Positions 23,946-61,265 of a stretch of DNA of 64,000 bases are shown here, piece after piece. The DNA is taken from contig OX485809.1 in NCBI GenBank assembly GCA_950295325.1, forward strand, positions 30,442,001 through 30,506,000. Direction: 5' to 3'. The notes beneath the pieces were generated by a model, which was not told where the DNA came from, did no database searches, and worked only from the letters and a program-made list of their open reading frames with translations. Position 1 is the first letter of the stretch. Every line of letters starts with the position of its first letter. A program made the position numbers and the translations under genes. Source of the stretch: Polytrichum commune. Its lineage: Eukaryota > Streptophyta > Polytrichopsida > Polytrichales > Polytrichaceae.

Positions 23946-25963
23946 AAACAAAAGTAGCCATTTAAAACCCGCCTACCTAAGAGCACCTCCACTTGAGAAT
24001 AATCTATATTCTATGTAAGGTTTAAAGTCTCAAGGTTATTAAGGGGATTAATTTTTAATCAATTAATAATAATTTGTACACAAGCAAGCATAAGAAACTA
24101 AATGACATGAAACATTTACAGATGATCATATAAGACCTTTCATTATTTTTTCTATTCACATAAGTTTCCAAAGTTTGCAACCCAATCATGTGATATAAGT
24201 GGAAAACCATGCATCCATGTTCATGATGAAGATGTATCCTAAAAAAATTCAATCGATATCAAAATAAATAACATTGGGAGGTTTTTGAATGGAAAAATTG
24301 GGAGCTCAAGAACATTCACTGCACACATGGAAGGGGAATGTGGAACACTTGGTGGGAATATAAAAAATAAATGATATGCCGTCCAATTATGTTTGGATGC
24401 AAACATCATCGAGGTTACAATAAATGAAACTATGCTTAGCATATACTAAGGGTCAGTTTACACCATGGACCATGAAGTCAAACCATGGAAGATGGCCTTT
24501 TTTCATGGTCCGACTTCATGGTCCAACTTCCATGGTCCGATTTCTAAAAAAGTCAATTTACAAAGCCTTTGGGTCCCTCGCTAGGTGTAAACCGAATGTG
24601 GACCAAGAAGAATGACCATGCACCAAAAAGTGAATGTGCTGATTTTTCATTAAATATTTACTTTAAGAGCGTATCTCTGCCATGGACCCCTGCCTTTTTC
24701 TACCAAGCCACCTCTTTTGCCTCTCTCACCGCAAAACCTGTTGGACCACATTAAGGACTTAAAATATGTCTTTTGGGGACCTCAACCTTCATGGTCACTC
24801 CGACATTTTTTTCTTGATGTAAATTGAAGTGATCCTAGGACTTTTTCTTTTTTCTTTTTTGGTTTTGGTGGTTTATGGTGGCTTGAAAAACATTGTTCAT
24901 GAATGCATGAGAAAAAGTTTGTCACTTGATAGGTCCTCCTTACAAAACATAGAGTTGATTGGTGTGCCATTTGATGCAGTTGTGGCTAAACAAAGCAGAA
25001 GAAGAGAGGAGGGAAGCATAGATCTACTGAAAGTGCCAACTTGCACTCAAAAAAGCATGTGAAATTATCCCAAAGGAGTGATATCCCAAAAGTAAGAAAT
25101 TATGAAGTAGACGTAGCTGCAAAGGGAAGTCAACAATCTACGGCTAACAAGAAAATCAAGAAAAGAGGAAGACCATCTAACCTATAGATTTGTGGTTTAC
25201 TTGGTATACTGGAAGGGTTTATAGAATGTGTCAAAATTTTGGTAATAGGTGGGCAGAATATAGGAAACTTAAAAAGATCTAACAACCCATCCCTTACATA
25301 TGAAGATAGGGTTATGTCGGTATCCAAAGTCTGATGGGACAAGGTGAACTTTTGATATAACAGGTCATATGACGATGACTTTAGATGATGTTATTGCTTG
25401 AGCTTCAAGGATGTGTGTTTTAGGGTCAAATTACTATGAGCTACAACTTATGGATGAAGAAGTGCTTAATGACTTTCTCATTGAAAACTGAAAGTGGATT
25501 GCATATGTAACAAAGGCCCATTCATTTCTTGCTTTATGTTTTGTGTGTATAGTGGAGGCATTTAACACATCAAACTGAAAAGTTGAGCATAAATACACAA
25601 GTCCATTTTCTAGCCTACCTAAGTATGTATACATTTGTTCTCTCTATAAACATCTCATATGTAAGGATTTTATTTTATAGTCACCCATGCATGTCATTTT
25701 AAATTCTAATGAAGAGGGGACTCCCACGGGGTTTTAGCGTTGAGTGAGATGGATGACACATTCACAAATGATATGACTCGAGCTTCATTTAAAGAATGTG
25801 TCATCCATTATTTCATCTTAAACATGTGTAGGTTCCAATAATCCTATATTTTGTGTTTGAACTTACATCTAATACACACATGTCACCATTTATACATGCA
25901 ACGATGTGCCATGGTTGCATGGAAGAAGAAAAACCAATACGGTCAAGATACCCATACCTTATT

Positions 25964-49370: not shown

Positions 49371-49968
49371 AGGCCAAATCCACCACCCTTTAGCATCCTA
49401 GTCCGGGTGATGACTTTGAGAATCACATGTGTCTATTACAACATTGAACCGTGTGCAAGGTAATTTTCATGTTCAAATGAACCCATATTGTCTCACTCAT
49501 TGTGCTTCATTAATATTAGCCTCTTGGCTTGTGGTAGAATGGTCTTTATCAAGAGTCCAACCCGCGGCTTTAGCCACGCATGCCCTTAAGGATACTCCCC
49601 TCACTCTTTTAATCTTTACTTCCATCTTCTTGCTATTGCAAGAATCCTCCACCTTCTCCATTACTGTGCACCTAATTTATGGGGACTTGAGAGTGTGCAA
49701 GTGTTGAAAAACACTTTACTCCATAGTCAAAGTTACATTTACTCACATGTGACCTCCACACACACACCTCCTATCCTATTGAGCTCAACACTTATCTAAG
49801 GACTATTTTAATCCATGATTGGCATAACACCCTCACGGCTAGTTTAGTGGCACCCTCCACACAATCTCAACCTTAACTTGCTAAACCTACCAACTGTCTA
49901 ATTAACCTGTTGGTACGACTCTGGCCTGGTTACCGGCGGTCCCTTGGTTACCCGAGTCCCAACCGCAT

Positions 49969-50173
49969 AATCCCACACGGTCCAGCAGTCTCGGCTGCCA
50001 AGCCTAATCCCACACGGCCCAACAGTCTCGGCTGCCAAGCCTAATCCCACAAGGCCCAACAGTCTCGGCTGCCAAGCCTAATCCCACACAGTTCAGCAGT
50101 CTCGGCTGCCAAGCCTAATACCACACAGTCCAGCAGTCGGCTGCCAAGCCTAAGCCCACACAGTCCAGCAGTC
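49969..50173 (+). repeat. 37-bp tandem repeat, about 5.5 copies
   Basis: Units begin AATCCCACACGG(T/C)CCA, continue CAGTCTCGGCTG and end CCAAGCCT. Four 37-bp units are followed by one shortened by two bases and a partial one. The copies touch without spacers, so it is a minisatellite. Confidence 0.9.
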
Positions 50174-55580: not shown

Positions 55581-55759
55581 CATGCGTATATCCTATTTGA
55601 GATCCTACGATTCTCTCAGTTTTTGAGGTGGACAAAGAAGGTCCCAAAAGTTTCACCCAACCTTCAAATAGGCTCCAATACACGACGAGCTAACGAGCTT
55701 GTAATAGAATTTTTTCTCAAAGGAGGGTCAAACCCAAGGTTTCATACCTCTTTGTACTA

Positions 55760-55887
55760 GGTAGCGGTCATCTACAGAGTGGCTACCGGGTGTAGCAGGG
55801 GAGCAGAACCTGCCGAGTCGCGTCAGCGACGAGGGAGGTTCTGTTCACCTGCTACACCCGGTAGCCACTCTGGATGACCTGCTGCCA
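55760..55887. repeat. 128-bp near-perfect palindrome upstream of the recombinase gene
   Basis: Arms 55760-55821 and 55826-55887 face each other across the 4-nt loop GTCA. The innermost stem is GTCGC/GCGAC, and the central stem includes TGGCTACCGGGTGTAGCAGG on the left and its inverse on the right. A few mismatches and one small bulge occur. It is GC-rich within AT-rich DNA and ends 191 bp before the ATG at 56078. Confidence 0.85.
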
Positions 55888-56077
55888 TACGTAGCCGATG
55901 AAGGATCTCAAAAATAGTTACCTGCCTATCCAGTTACTAATAGGTACCTTCCTTGTTGGCGGGAGGTAGGAATTTCAAAAGTGTCACGCCGAGCTATCTC
56001 CAACACTTCTATTCTCAGTTTAGGCTTTTTGTGCTCTGTCAGTTCTGTCTTTGTTGTTTGCCAATCTTGTCGCTGTC

Positions 56078-59000
56078 ATGGAAGGTAATCAAGAGGATGG
56101 TGACGTTGAGCAACATCAGCCTATGCCGTCATTCAAGTTGTTTAGTGATGACGATGAGTTGGAGAGGCCGTTAGAAGTTGGTACTTCAAGGGGTAGAAAG
56201 AAGGGACGTTCTGGCACCAAGTTTCGTGGATCTAGATCTGGAAGGCGCAGTCGAGGTCGAGGACGAGGACAAGCTCCTGTGCATCGTGATTCACACGGTG
56301 TCGAAGAGATCTATGTTCCATCAGAAACATCTTTGTTGAATTCATCACAGTTTGCTTGTGGTGCAGATGGCGTTTTGTTGAGTGATAGCCATAATGTTGT
56401 TTCAAGTGTGCAAACTGTTTGTATTGACGCACCTCCATCCTCAGATGTTCGTGTTGATGGTGTTGATTCGAACATTGTGAGAAGCAACACTATTCCCAAT
56501 GTTTTGAATGCACCAGTGTTTGTGAACACTACTGTGTGTGCAGATCTCACAACTGCTGCATCCGTAAATGCTACCTTCATAAATGGGACAAGAAGTGATG
56601 GCAATCCAAGCTCTAGTTCTGTACATCTTGGGGAGGTTCCAGTGCATGCTAGTGAGTTTCCACTCCAAGATAGATCTTCACAGGACCTTGTTGTGCATGT
56701 GGCACATGCGATTGTTCCATCTTCCTCGGAATTTCTGGATTTAGATCAAGAGGATTTCAATAGTGTCTAAAATGGCGATGAATCAAACAGTTACCGAAAC
56801 GAGAGGTGGTGTATCAATAGATTTAATGCTTGGCGTAGGCACATGAATATCCCCACTGATATCCCCGTGGAAAAGATTCCACTACAGGAACTTGGTGTGA
56901 TTCTTAGCAAGTTCTTTTTGATGGTTTGCAAGGTTGATGGCAACAAGTATCCAACCGAGTCCATCAAAAACCTCTTGATGTCTTTCAATCGCATAATTCT
57001 AAGAGAGCAGAAAACTCGTATCAATCTGACTTGGAATGAGGAGGTTGAGTTCAATATTCAGAGGCATCCGTGGTTTATTGGTGCTTGTCGCGCCGTACAA
57101 AAGGCAATGACCAAAAGTAAGGATCTAGGGGCCAATAAACCTCGGAGGAAAGTCGATCCTCTAACTTATGAGCAGGAGAAGTTAATCTTGGCCCATCCTT
57201 TACATCAGGTTACATCTGCTCATGGGATTCACAAGAGAATGGCCTTTTACTGTTTTATTGTCTTCCTCATCAGAGGTAACACTGAATTGTGGAAGGTAAT
57301 GGTCAAGGACTTCACAATTGAAGTGGATCAACGTGGACGTGAGTTCTTGAAGTAGGTGTCCTCTCTTCAGAATCCATCAATTTTTAGAATCTACAAGTGC
57401 CTTTGTTGTTCTATATATGTGCACTAAAGTTCTGAGTATGAGCGTAATATTATTCTCATTTGAATGGCCTTTGGTCTTGAGGTTCAGAATGATGCATGAC
57501 TAACAACTTCAGTAATTAGGTGTCTACGGGCCTGCTCGGAGTCTCAAACATTTTCGGTAGTTTGAGTATGATCATATTAACAATATTGATATGTTGTGCA
57601 GGTACGATGAGCGTACTTCAAAGAACCACAAAGTTACACTCAGCAGGTTCCAAGAAGAACACTTCAGGAGGCCAGTAGTTTCTTTCGATCCTGATGTAGT
57701 AGCCACATTTCGAGCTCTTTTGTCTCATATGCCAACCAACTCAGAGCATGGTCATCTATTTCTTGCTGCAATTGTCAATCCACGTTCTAATATTTGGTTC
57801 AGAAGTGGCATCAATGTTGGTGAGTCTGCTATGAGAAACTGGATGCGTCAGATGTGTAAGACAGTAGGTCTAGTTGGTGATTTTACTAATAAATCAGGGA
57901 GAGTGACTGCAATTTCACGCATGTCAGCAGGTATGGTCCCTAGAAAAGCAATCGCTTCAGTTACTGGTCATCGTGATGAAAAGACTCTTGAAAGGTACGA
58001 TAGAACGTTGCAATTGCAACAAAACGCTGCCCAAGCTCTTTGTAGGGAACCTTACGATGAGGATGGTAATCCTCTTACATATGAAGACCATTATCGCAGG
58101 CAAATGGAGCATTACCATGCGCATGAAAATGTGCTAGAGGATAGTACATCAGAACTTCCTCCCTCTCATGGAAGTGGCATCCAACAAGGTTTTGGTGGCC
58201 GACTCCAGATCCGATCTGCACCGGACCAGGTTGAGGAACAAAATTTTGTTTCTGAAGCTTTTGAGGAAGATGTTCATAATACGAGTGAAAATGATGATGA
58301 AATTGTTGTTTGTCCTGAAGTTCAAGAGTGTGGCCAAAATTTAGACGATCCTTCTATTCTCCCACCAACAAAGACTAGGAGATTTGATTCCACTTCGCAT
58401 GTCAGATTCCAGGTTCCTCCTACTACAATTCCCCATGCAAGTGCCTTTCGTCCAAGTAATGTGCACAGTGCATTTCGTCCAGTAGTTTCTTGCCGACCTC
58501 ATGTGCCGCCTCCAATATACAGACCTCAAGCAGCTCCATTGCAGAGGCAATTTTATACCCCTTCAAGGCCTTTTAATCATGTGTACAAACCATACGATAT
58601 CTATCATGATAGGGTTTTTGCTCCTCCGCCGAGGCCTATGGCTCCTTATCAACATGTTCAGTCTATTGGTCAGGCAAATCCCGGTAACATCAGGACATGT
58701 TGCGGTAACATACCATATGTTGTGACACCTAATACATCTACCCCGGAAGCTGTGTGGTTAGAGTACGTTAAAGAATGCTGGAATTATGAATGGACATCTT
58801 TTGAGAAAGAAGATTTCAGTCATCACATCCCGGCTACTACTGTTGATGCTGTAAATTTACCGTGTGTCCAAGCTGTTTCAAGTGGTCAATGTGCAGAAAC
58901 TAATGATGTTAATCAGGTCATGCAAGATGCTGAGAGGAATAACCAACAAGTTGGTGAAGGAGTTGCAGTATTGAATCCCGTGGCATTGCAACAAGTTGAT

Positions 59001-59147
59001 GTCCCTAGGCAAGCTGATGTTGGTCGAATTCAGTTCCATGCTGGAGTTCACCACCACTACAATATTGTTTTAGGCGATCCCATCTCTTTGTCAAGAGTTT
59101 TGGAGAATATATTCCAACGAACTGGACGTGATGGTTCAGGGAATTAA
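56078..59147 (+). CDS. DUF3504/Crypton-type tyrosine recombinase gene, 2 exons, one in-frame stop
   Basis: Exon 1 ends at 57351 (donor GTAGGT) and exon 2 runs 57602-59147 (acceptor TGTGCAG); the join restores REFLK|YDERTSKNHK and a 940-codon frame. The N-terminal 230 residues are low-complexity with an RG/RS-rich basic patch (RSGRRSRGRGRG). An in-frame TAA at 56768-56770 separates them from the core. The core has a SAM-like N-terminal region (ERWCINRFNAWRRHMNIP), an Arg in FLIRGNTELWKV (57272), a Lys-rich strand, then TNKSGRVTAISRMSAG (Arg 57900; the usual His two positions before is Lys), TGHRD (His 57969) and LERYDRT (Tyr 57996). This order R, R, H, Y is that of tyrosine recombinases and matches the DUF3504 family related to Crypton transposons. 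The C-terminal 330 residues are Pro-rich and disordered-looking, with WLEYVKECWNYEW near the end. Translation may restart at ATG 56843, or the copy may be dead. Confidence 0.7.
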
Positions 59148-59248
59148 TGCAGGAAGATTAGTGCAAACCCAGTGCAGGTATGCGATTGAATTAATTGTGT
59201 TGGCAACTTTGAGCATGGGTTGATCTGTAGCTAATTCCTCTGCCTGCA

Positions 59249-60620
59249 TTAATTTGTGCAATGATCTGTAGCTGGCTGTTCATGTGCCTGCCTTACTTTG
59301 TTTTCGATCATCCTCCTGGATATAGATTGCACCCTAGCTTGATAATTTCTGAAGCTAAATGTGTTTTTGGTGTGAATGGTTAGCATATTTTGTGTTTTGT
59401 TTTGTTTCGAATAATCTGTTTTGTTCCGGAAGTCTTTTTCAGCAATGTAATGTTGAGTGGAACTTCGAATGTATTTGCAGGTGGGTACATTGTCATGGGC
59501 TCCCGCACCTCTGGTAAGACTGAGGTGGCTACCACCCGAGCTACATGAGACCAATTTGTTCCTTAGAATACAACAACACGTCTTCAGGTGTCATTCTGGA
59601 GGTCATTCTGTGAACGAACCTCTGAATTTGAGCAGGATATGAGGTGCTTAGCTCATACTGGAAAAGAGGCCTTACCTGCCTCATGCTTTTAATCCATTTG
59701 GTAGAAAGAGGTGTTTGAATATAGTGCATTAATGCACTATTCATTTGCAAGCACCCACCCGATGGTTTTGGAAGGTCCTAGAGCTAGAATAGGCTGTCAA
59801 TAGATGTTGCATTAGACCCCTAACCTGTGAGGTTGATTGGACCTTGCTCCAGTCCAAGTTCCTTGGATCAACACTAGATTCATGCAAAAGAACACATAGT
59901 AGAGGAGATGTTTGTGCTTTATATGGCATCGATCTTGAGCATCCAAGATGTCAAATGGTGGCTTGTGCACTCTCATTGTCAATTCTGAAATCATTCATCA
60001 GATGCTCAACAAAAATAAAAGCAGGGGGAGAAGTATGTAAGCACCCCTTGTCGTGTCTCCTGGTAAGTGTTGGGTTCTATTTGTCTCTGAATTGTCAATT
60101 GATCTGGTATTAGTGTAGTTGTACATCACTTTTTTGGTAGTTAACCAATTTGAAAATCCATGGAATGATTCACAAGAGGTTTAGCCTATTGGCTAGCAAA
60201 CTGTACCATTGGTTTTTGTGTACCTGAGCTGTTTGATTGAGGAAAGGCATACAATTATTCTTGCATACTGCTGTGGAACCTTAATGTGAAGAGGTCACCT
60301 TTTTGCAGCAATTCCCTATTTGATGGTGTTGGAACATGTGCAGATAAGATTTAAACCATTCTAGGTTCAATAGCTAATGCAATTGGGTAGGGTCTATATG
60401 ATTGTTTAAAGTGAGAATATTTACTTCGACCCCTTATAACTTTTGCATCTCACCTTGATTCTGAAACTTGCAATGACAATCTCCAAGCTGACGGATCAAT
60501 CATTCCAACAGATTTCACCAGCTGATGTGGCTAGGGTGCAATCGATCTCCAGGTGGATGATCGTATGCAAATTAACGCAAGCACTGAAACAGCTAGCTAC
60601 CTACAGATCAATACACAAAT
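59249..60620. repeat. inverted repeat pair of about 95 bp
   Basis: 59270-59345 read on the minus strand (CTAGGGTGCAATC-AT, CCAGG-GGATGATCG, AAGGCAGGCAC-TGA) resembles 60528-60600 on the plus strand (CTAGGGTGCAATCGAT, CCAGGTGGATGATCG, ACGCAAGCACTGA). They could be ends of a decayed element or two insertions. Confidence 0.5.
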
Positions 60621-61265
60621 TCGATAGTCCCGGCACACTTCACCGCAAAAAGTTCCAAAATCAAAGGCAGGGTGCAAGACGATCTCCAGAAGCACGATGA
60701 GCTACAACGGAGAGAAAGAGAAAAGATATTTGAAAATGGATTCCCGCCCATTTGGGGCTAATTGGTGTAATAATCTAGTCCCACATGGTGAAAAGGGTAG
60801 GTAAGTAGGTCGGAACAAGTTAGGTAGGTCGCAACACAGTAGGTCGCTATGGTCTTGGACCGTCCAGTGGAGAGCCAATGGGACTTCGCCACATCAGCTT
60901 CTATATCTCCAGAATCGGCTACGAGGGACTGTACAGATAACTATATTGTGTTAGTAAGCTTCAGATCTTTCCTCACAATCAAGGATTTATGTAGATGGGA
61001 GCTTATGTTACAGCCCATAATCGTCAAAAAATGATTATTTTCTTAGTTTAGGTAGAGCTCACAACGGTTTTACACTATTTACAATAAATTGGAACTTTTC
61101 TATGAGATGCTGAAGTTCATCGTTAGTGTGCAGTTTGGGGGGGGGGGGGGGGAGGGGAGTTTGAGAGGCACAGTGGAGGAGATGAGGCTTGGGAATTTGG
61201 AGTGGAAGCAATTGATCTGTGTATCTTATGCAAGCACATGTTCTGTGATTGGGTGGGGATTGCAG
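59346..61265. other. region without supported gene
   Basis: Several short frames but no recognised motif. Contains a G17-like run at 61137-61153. Confidence 0.35.

What the first reader, a model, noticed from the sequence alone, without database searches (positions are those of the whole stretch)
56078..59147. Crypton/DUF3504-type tyrosine recombinase in a land plant
The two-exon frame carries the R...R...H...Y series of tyrosine recombinases in the DUF3504 context (TGHRDEKTLERYDRT). Cryptons are known to me from fungi, oomycetes and animals, and their domesticated forms from vertebrates; I do not know of a described land-plant case. The usual His before the second Arg is Lys (TNKSGR). It may be a plant Crypton, a horizontally acquired element, or a domesticated gene.
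Basis: partly seen in the sequence, partly recalled or inferred. Interest (0 to 1): 0.85.

Follow-up and report, generated by a model that had tools for sequence, protein, structure and literature searches.

The report
Moss Crypton-like transposon with hairpin end
A jumping gene that uses a phage-integrase-like enzyme, of a class that a 2026 review says is not described in plants, sits with several relatives and many short derivatives in this plant genome, and one of its ends folds into a long hairpin that recalls the recombination sites of bacterial integrons.

Summary
The finding is real and goes further than stated. The gene lies in a 5,169-bp mobile element (55755-60923). Its ends recur at four insertion sites with unlike flanks, and paralogous empty sites are gap-free at the junction for the window insertion and for one of another family. 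The protein is a tyrosine recombinase (phrog_1 integrase E 1.2e-9; 6 of 7 members) with invariant K-x-x-R, H, Y. Pfam DUF3504 does not match it. The window copy has an in-frame TAA at 56768-56770 that three other copies lack. Four families have defined ends, and one miniature derivative's left-end pattern matches 221 times. Target: TATG in 23 of 42 sites. Left ends share one design (fam4 on one locus): spacer, long hairpin, inverted copy of the right end. The joined circle junction folds into one long hairpin with a small interruption at the spacer, next to the crossover. Best reading: Crypton-like DNA transposons of a plant, probably the first characterised. The bold reading, recombination on a folded single strand as in integrons, is not excluded and can be tested.

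The parts
55755..60923 (+). whole element, fam1, 5169 bp; target G at 55754 (TTTG|TACTAG), right end CGGCTACG|AGGG
   Evidence: sharp loss of similarity at both ends at four insertion sites; empty sites gap-free at the junction
55760..55886 (.). left-terminal hairpin (outermost pair 55760-55886)
   Evidence: DNA fold of 55753-55900 -65.5 kcal/mol, z -13.4, 0 of 200 shuffles as good; limits
55890..55899 (.). inverted copy of the right end (CGTAGCCGAT) just inside the hairpin
   Evidence: 10-bp uninterrupted match to the reverse complement of 60914-60923
56078..57351 (+). exon 1 of the recombinase gene, with TAA in frame at 56768-56770; holds N-terminal helical domain and first catalytic Arg
57352..57601 (+). 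intron GTAGGT...TGCAG
   Evidence: splice sites read from sequence; no transcript seen
57602..59147 (+). exon 2: Lys, K-x-x-R, His, Tyr; long proline-rich tail
60914..60923 (.). right terminus ATCGGCTACG

Best explanation
The feature is a decayed copy of a tyrosine-recombinase DNA transposon that works like a Crypton. Shown: defined ends, copies at unlike sites, empty sites without net duplication, a 4-base core TAYG, non-autonomous derivatives, a recombinase with the catalytic set. Inferred: the recombinase joins the two ends into a circle at G|TACTAG and inserts it at TATG-like sites by attack of its tyrosine. The left hairpin together with the inverted copy of the right end forms the enzyme's binding site at the circle junction. 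The window copy probably cannot make the full protein; fam2 copies L019 and L021 in the same genome have open frames in both exons and could still move.
For: Ends and copies. Empty sites: the window insertion against C7:26859401-26859800 (272 columns, no gap), C3:8920651-8921050 (356 columns, gaps only away from the junction) and C5:28369751-28370150 (84 columns, no gap); fam2 L021 against C6:24134401-24134850 (409 columns, gaps only away from the junction). Equal-length matches span the junction for three miniature copies, L031, L041 and L050 (letters not seen). Target: TATG 23 of 42, A or T at -3 in 42 of 42; G at -1 in 42 of 42, partly by my anchoring. Enzyme: phrog_1 6 of 7 members, best 1.2e-9, residues 123-340 of the joined window protein; PF00589 5 of 7, best 3e-5; 3nkh 3.2e-5. 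Derivatives: 221 left-end pattern matches, 0 with the reversed pattern. Common end design.
Against: No circle and no transposition event was observed. All five long fam1 copies have broken frames. Half-domain structure models were weak (mean pLDDT 69.4 and 64.3) and Foldseek gave nothing at E 0.001 or better; 3nkh and XerA ranked first and second for the exon-2 half, but at E 1.2 and 4.4, and the exon-1 half had no recombinase among the 50 rows shown. The flank comparison for the L011 site is not clean (72%, 3-base gap at the junction). Six of the 9 sites given and 28 of the 31 given showed no spanning match (40 candidates scored in each).
Confidence: 0.85

Rival explanations
1. The hairpin is inert or regulatory, and recombination is ordinary double-strand exchange at short inverted arms or a short core, as in other tyrosine recombinases.
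For: fam1 and fam3 circle junctions have short inverted arms around GTA[CT]TAG (inner runs of 5 and 7). A 4-bp TAYG core fits duplex exchange too. With the junction correctly joined, the folded spacer is mostly paired in fam1-3, unlike a wide attC spacer.
Against: fam2 has no such arms (inner run 0) and fam4 a run of 2, while the inverted copy of the right end matches 28 and 23 of 30 there. The hairpin sits at the same place in four families with unlike sequences.
Confidence: 0.5
2. A tyrosine-recombinase retroelement (DIRS, Ngaro) that lost its reverse transcriptase.
For: Internal copies of terminal sequence recall DIRS repeats (passages of PMC4157794).
Against: No RT among the window frames; fam2 elements of 3.2 kb have no room for one (frames of other families were listed but not scanned with Pfam for RT). 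Genomic copies keep the intron.
Confidence: 0.05
3. A domesticated host gene that happens to be duplicated.
Against: Copies share exact non-coding ends, unlike flanks, empty sites and decayed frames.
Confidence: 0.02
4. Rolling-circle or other replicative transposition with a terminal hairpin (Helitron-like), the YR acting only as resolvase.
For: A terminal hairpin on one side only.
Against: No Rep or helicase match in the window frames; TAYG-like core on both sides; the 34 miniature loci fetched keep both ends, two of them (L049, L051) with a damaged first base stretch.
Confidence: 0.05

Closest known systems
Crypton DNA transposons (CryptonF, S, A, I)
   Same: YR gene as the only enzyme found; short core repeats at the ends (4-6 bp, TATGG in most CryptonS, passages of PMC3212892; here TATG/TACG); few full-length copies with more abundant non-autonomous derivatives
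   Different: plant host; Lys for His in H-x-x-R; no GCR1_C or C48 peptidase match; terminal hairpin plus inverted copy of the right end. The words hairpin, palindrom and stem do not occur in the held main text of that paper
Integron cassette attC sites
   Same: a palindromic site that can fold into one long hairpin from one strand, with an asymmetric interruption near the crossover (passages of PMC2727003)
   Different: interruption is small in fam1-3 (2-3 unpaired bases on the spacer side); no consistent extrahelical bases; eukaryotic; many target sites
CTXphi phage attP (recalled, no call)
   Same: folded single-strand attachment site used by tyrosine recombinases
   Different: uses host XerC/D; phage
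DIRS retrotransposons
   Same: YR, internal copies of terminal sequence (passages of PMC4157794)
   Different: no RT found here

Membership tests
Crypton | tyrosine recombinase with catalytic Arg, His, Arg, Tyr | tested here: met
   the His of H-x-x-R is Lys here
Crypton | no RT, no DDE transposase in the element | tested here: met
   window element: only YR frames are long; no RT or DDE match up to E 1 in the three long frames
Crypton | short (4-6 bp) direct repeats at both termini as recombination core | tested here: met
   imperfect: left TATG in 23 of 42, right TACG or AACG in 39 of 42; two sites (L050, L052) end in TATG and one (L030) in AAC
Crypton | no terminal inverted repeats | tested here: inconclusive
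   an inverted copy of the right end exists but lies inside the left hairpin, not at the terminus
Crypton | clusters with a known Crypton group in a YR tree | not testable with these tools
   no Crypton sequences held
CryptonF | GCR1_C domain | tested here: not met
   no such match up to E 1 in the three window frames or 7 catalytic-region sequences
CryptonS | C48 peptidase (in some members) | tested here: not met
   no such match up to E 1 in the three window frames
DUF3504 (PF12012) | profile match over cut-off | tested here: not met
   one genome-wide match, E 0.95, elsewhere; absent
attC-type folded site | two-stem hairpin with unpaired central spacer at the crossover | tested here: inconclusive
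   long hairpin across the junction in four families, but the spacer has only 2-3 unpaired bases in fam1-3 and 9 in fam4
attC-type folded site | conserved extrahelical bases | tested here: not met
   no shared extrahelical bases; fam3 inner stem is perfect and fam2 nearly so
attC-type folded site | recombination of one strand of single-stranded DNA | not testable with these tools
   needs biochemistry

The most novel reading that the evidence does not exclude
These plant elements recombine through a folded single strand of the circle junction, as integron cassettes do: the recombinase reads hairpin shape, exchanges one strand at G|TACTAG, and replication finishes the job. This would be a eukaryotic attC-like transposition system. 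In its favour: the same hairpin place in four families without sequence conservation; changes on both sides of a pair within families (2 of 58 pairs in fam1, 0 of 54 in fam2; 4 of 66 in fam3); a crossover nearly confined to one point (the TA[CT]TAG spacer never follows the right end, 0 of 42; three sites, L030, L050 and L052, shift by a few bases); and two loci where the stretch opposite the spacer has become its exact complement (L025, L068), which suggests that the strand does fold in vivo. Against: the spacer is mostly paired in fam1-3, and template switching at palindromes could give the paired changes. I lowered the probability from 0.33 to 0.28 after one search corrected the fam1 junction.
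Probability: 0.28. Interest if true: 0.93.

Novelty: new variant of a known kind. Interest (0 to 1): 0.82.

Why it matters
A 2026 review states that Cryptons are not described in plants (passage of PMC13317346). Here four families with ends, cores, empty sites and a miniature derivative whose left-end pattern matches 221 times lie in one plant genome, so the host range of a transposon class widens. The terminal hairpin makes a clear prediction (folded-strand recombination) that can be tested with one enzyme and oligonucleotides. Similar miniature elements in other bryophyte genomes may now be filed as unknown repeats (inference).

Tried and rejected
DUF3504 membership: tested, not met. Structure: exon halves folded separately because the tool admits only uninterrupted translations; models too weak for a fold verdict. 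Relatives in phage records, viral contigs and prokaryote genomes: none at the sensitivity used; searches find close relatives only. Domesticated gene: rejected (ends, copies, empty sites). DIRS remnant: no RT found. Promoter/terminator scan of 55700-56200: nothing, and not suited to plants. An attC-like wide unpaired spacer, which I first read, did not hold for fam1: that fold had one G too many; one search gives the corrected folds.

Print search: (ten searches, open-access PMC only). Plant tables that list 'Crypton' were seen: 535 in the authors' own soybean annotation (PMC8729191, section 12) and a 'Crypton-H/A' row in a sour cherry genome paper (PMC10722297, passage). I saw no description of a plant Crypton's structure in what I read, but most listed papers were not opened. 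Preprints, Repbase reports and subscription papers were not searched.

Full report
Setting. The window is C7:30442001-30506000 of a 407.8-Mb assembly whose seven large contigs sum to 406.1 Mb (lengths). The LEAFY domain PF01698 gives four matches over its cut-off and none in 14 control genomes, so the host is of the plant lineage. A haploid set of seven and this size would suit a moss such as a polytrichid; that is recalled, not tested.

The observation. Frames at 56024-56770, 56771-57355 and 57561-59147 form a two-exon gene. The intron 57352-57601 is GTAGGT...TGCAG, read from sequence. The window copy has an in-frame TAA at 56768-56770; three other copies have a sense codon there and the duplicate L009 shares the TAA. 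PF00589 matches exon 2 weakly (E 0.003, below cut-off) and 5 of 7 family sequences, best E 3e-5. phrog_1 (integrase) matches 6 of 7, best E 1.2e-9, over residues 123-340 of the joined window protein. NCBIfam gives a weak XerA-type match for 4 of 7 (best 0.0033) and none for the window sequence. A profile of the seven finds integrase 3nkh (3.2e-5) and, below significance, XerA (0.4); in both, H-x-x-R of the known enzyme aligns with K-S-G-R here. K-x-x-R, H and Y are invariant in 10 exon-2 pieces, and the first Arg in 10 exon-1 pieces. That Lys can stand at this place (as in pox-type topoisomerase) is recalled. DUF3504 fails.

The element. Comparing the window copy with copies on C7 and C6 shows 97-98.7% identity that begins at 55750-55753 and ends at 60923-60924, with unlike flanks. 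L010 matches nearly throughout, with about 400 extra bases near its right end; L011 and L012 match only 55753-59394 and 60762-60924, so their non-coding 3' parts differ. The copy at C7:30531753 is part of a duplication (99.96% over the 10 kb compared) and not an independent insertion; that leaves four independent sites. The left 153 bp occur at six full-length places and the right 162 bp at five; one left end (L024, C1) is truncated. All five long fam1 copies have broken frames; L010 has stops in the 5' part.

More families. A search with the exon-2 frame gave 34 matches. Fetched loci fall into fam2 (L019-L022, 3.2 kb, 97.6-98.9% alike over shared parts, open frames in L019 and L021), fam3 (L014, L015), fam4 (L013, L016, L017) and singletons L018 and L023. 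Identities of the joined catalytic regions to the window sequence are 34-57%. Judging from where the frames break, fam1, fam3 and fam4 share the intron position and fam2 has another.

The shared ends. Left ends: G|TACTAG (fam1, fam2), G|TATTAG (fam3), G|AACTAG (fam4, seen in L017 only), each followed at once by a hairpin. For fam1-3 the fold has z -13.4, -13.5 and -10.5, 0 of 200 shuffles as good in each; fam4 was not tested that way. L013, L016 and L023 gave no such left end; L018 has a 102-bp palindrome but no defined ends. Inside the hairpin comes an inverted copy of the right end: 28, 25 and 23 of 30 for fam2, fam3 and fam4 against a maximum of 20, 19 and 20 in 2000 shuffles each; fam1 has 17 of 30 (shuffle maximum 19, so not significant by that count) but an unbroken run of 10 from the end. 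Right ends finish in TACG or AACG, in L016 TATG. Joined right-to-left as in a circle, all four fold into one long hairpin. Correctly joined, the interruption at the spacer is small in fam1-3 (2, 2 and 3 unpaired bases on the spacer side, beginning 1-2 bases after the crossover) and wide in fam4 (9 bases, beginning 2 before it); the wide fam1 bulge came from a joining error. Duplex inverted arms around the spacer are weak or absent in fam2 and fam4. Changes on both sides of a pair: 2 of 58 pairs in five fam1 left ends, 0 of 54 in eight fam2 left ends, 4 of 66 in 30 fam3 junctions, with 1954 of 1978 cells paired. The fam1 copy L011 has a decayed stem (-48.5 against -64 to -66 kcal/mol), and fam2 L020 lost part of its hairpin.

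Derivatives. Concatenated fam2 and fam3 ends hit contiguous miniature elements of about 255-280 bp that hold left and right ends only: 5 of fam2 and 35 of fam3 in the 40 places scored of 236 candidates; 34 of these 40 were fetched. The fam3 left-end pattern with up to two mismatches matches 221 times, reversed-pattern control 0. The full-length copies L014 and L015 are within two mismatches too, and a perfect palindrome such as L068 counts twice, so 221 is not an exact number of miniature elements.

Target and empty sites. At 42 sites (31 miniature, 11 full length) the four bases before the element are TATG in 23, AATG in 6, TTTG in 3, others 10; G at -1 is 42 of 42, but my anchor included that G, and in L030 it may belong to the element. 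Two sites have TATG instead of TACG at the right (L050, L052), so the shared core is TAYG. Paralogous empty sites align without gap at the junction for the window insertion (three places: 272 columns without gap; 356 columns with gaps elsewhere; 84 without gap) and for L021 (409 columns, gaps elsewhere). For L041, L031 and L050 equal-length matches span the junction (letters not seen; a second match of L031 differs by one base in length). The L011 comparison is not clean. No spanning match appeared for 6 of 9 sites and 28 of 31.

Mechanism. Shown: past mobility, end structure, core, enzyme class. Inferred: circle intermediate, junction at G|TACTAG, integration at TATG. Exchange over a 6-8 bp spacer, as in Tn916 (recalled), should leave the element's spacer on either side; here TA[CT]TAG or AACTAG never follows the right end (0 of 42). 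This fits either a 4-bp core with duplex exchange or an attC-like single-strand exchange (attC features from passages of PMC2727003). Two loci, L025 and L068, have the stretch opposite the spacer turned into its exact complement, which suggests folding in vivo but not recombination on the folded strand.

Known or not. PMC3212892 (abstract, sections 5 and 17, passages) lists Cryptons in fungi, animals and stramenopiles; its Table 1 has no plant (Chlamydomonas appears only among species abbreviations of the tree), and the words hairpin, palindrom and stem do not occur in the held main text. A 2026 review says that Cryptons are not described in plants (PMC13317346, passage). Annotation tables for angiosperms carry Crypton rows (PMC8729191 section 12; PMC10722297 passage). 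I found no description of a land-plant Crypton structure in ten searches (listed in Tried and rejected); most listed papers were not opened.

Verdict. A real, once mobile, Crypton-like YR transposon lineage of a plant, with a hairpin end design not mentioned in the Crypton paper consulted here. Membership in a Crypton clade needs a tree that could not be made here.

Noticed in passing
L068 (C2:9663789-9664078) and L025 (C1:28596001-28597500): Left ends in which the stretch opposite TA[CT]TAG has become its exact complement, giving palindromes of 90 and 71 bp; looks like hairpin-templated repair or template switching.
   Followed up: partly
L024 left flank and L025: The two loci on C1, 9 kb apart and inverted, share 77 bp (95%), of which about 43 bp are flank, so the same target sequence seems to have been used or copied twice.
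   Followed up: partly
C7:30499561 and C7:30531753: A duplication with an offset of 32,192 bp holds the window element in both copies (99.96% over the 10 kb compared); it could be real or an assembly effect.
   Followed up: partly
C5:34291977-34292267 near L050: Two stretches just downstream of one miniature copy match its joined flanks, so it seems to have inserted in a tandem repeat.
   Followed up: no
window 59251-59338 and 60530-60621: Inverted repeat (about 81%) inside the non-coding 3' part of the element; role unknown.
   Followed up: no
L013: About 1.7 kb inserted in this fam4 copy between the exon parts, with 77-81 bp internal repeats.
   Followed up: no
window exon 2 tail, L013, L019, L021: By eye, the C-terminal ends look alike (FHAGVHHHYNIVLGDPISL / FSGHISNNVFHFHVHDPFEL / FHGNISNCTIQLSIPDAAS) after a long low-complexity stretch, possibly a second conserved module.
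   Followed up: no
window 49965-50173: Short tandem array with a period of about 37 bp.
   Followed up: no
window 24466-24525 and 25749-25808: Two further palindromes of 60-64 bp, weaker than the element's hairpin.
   Followed up: no
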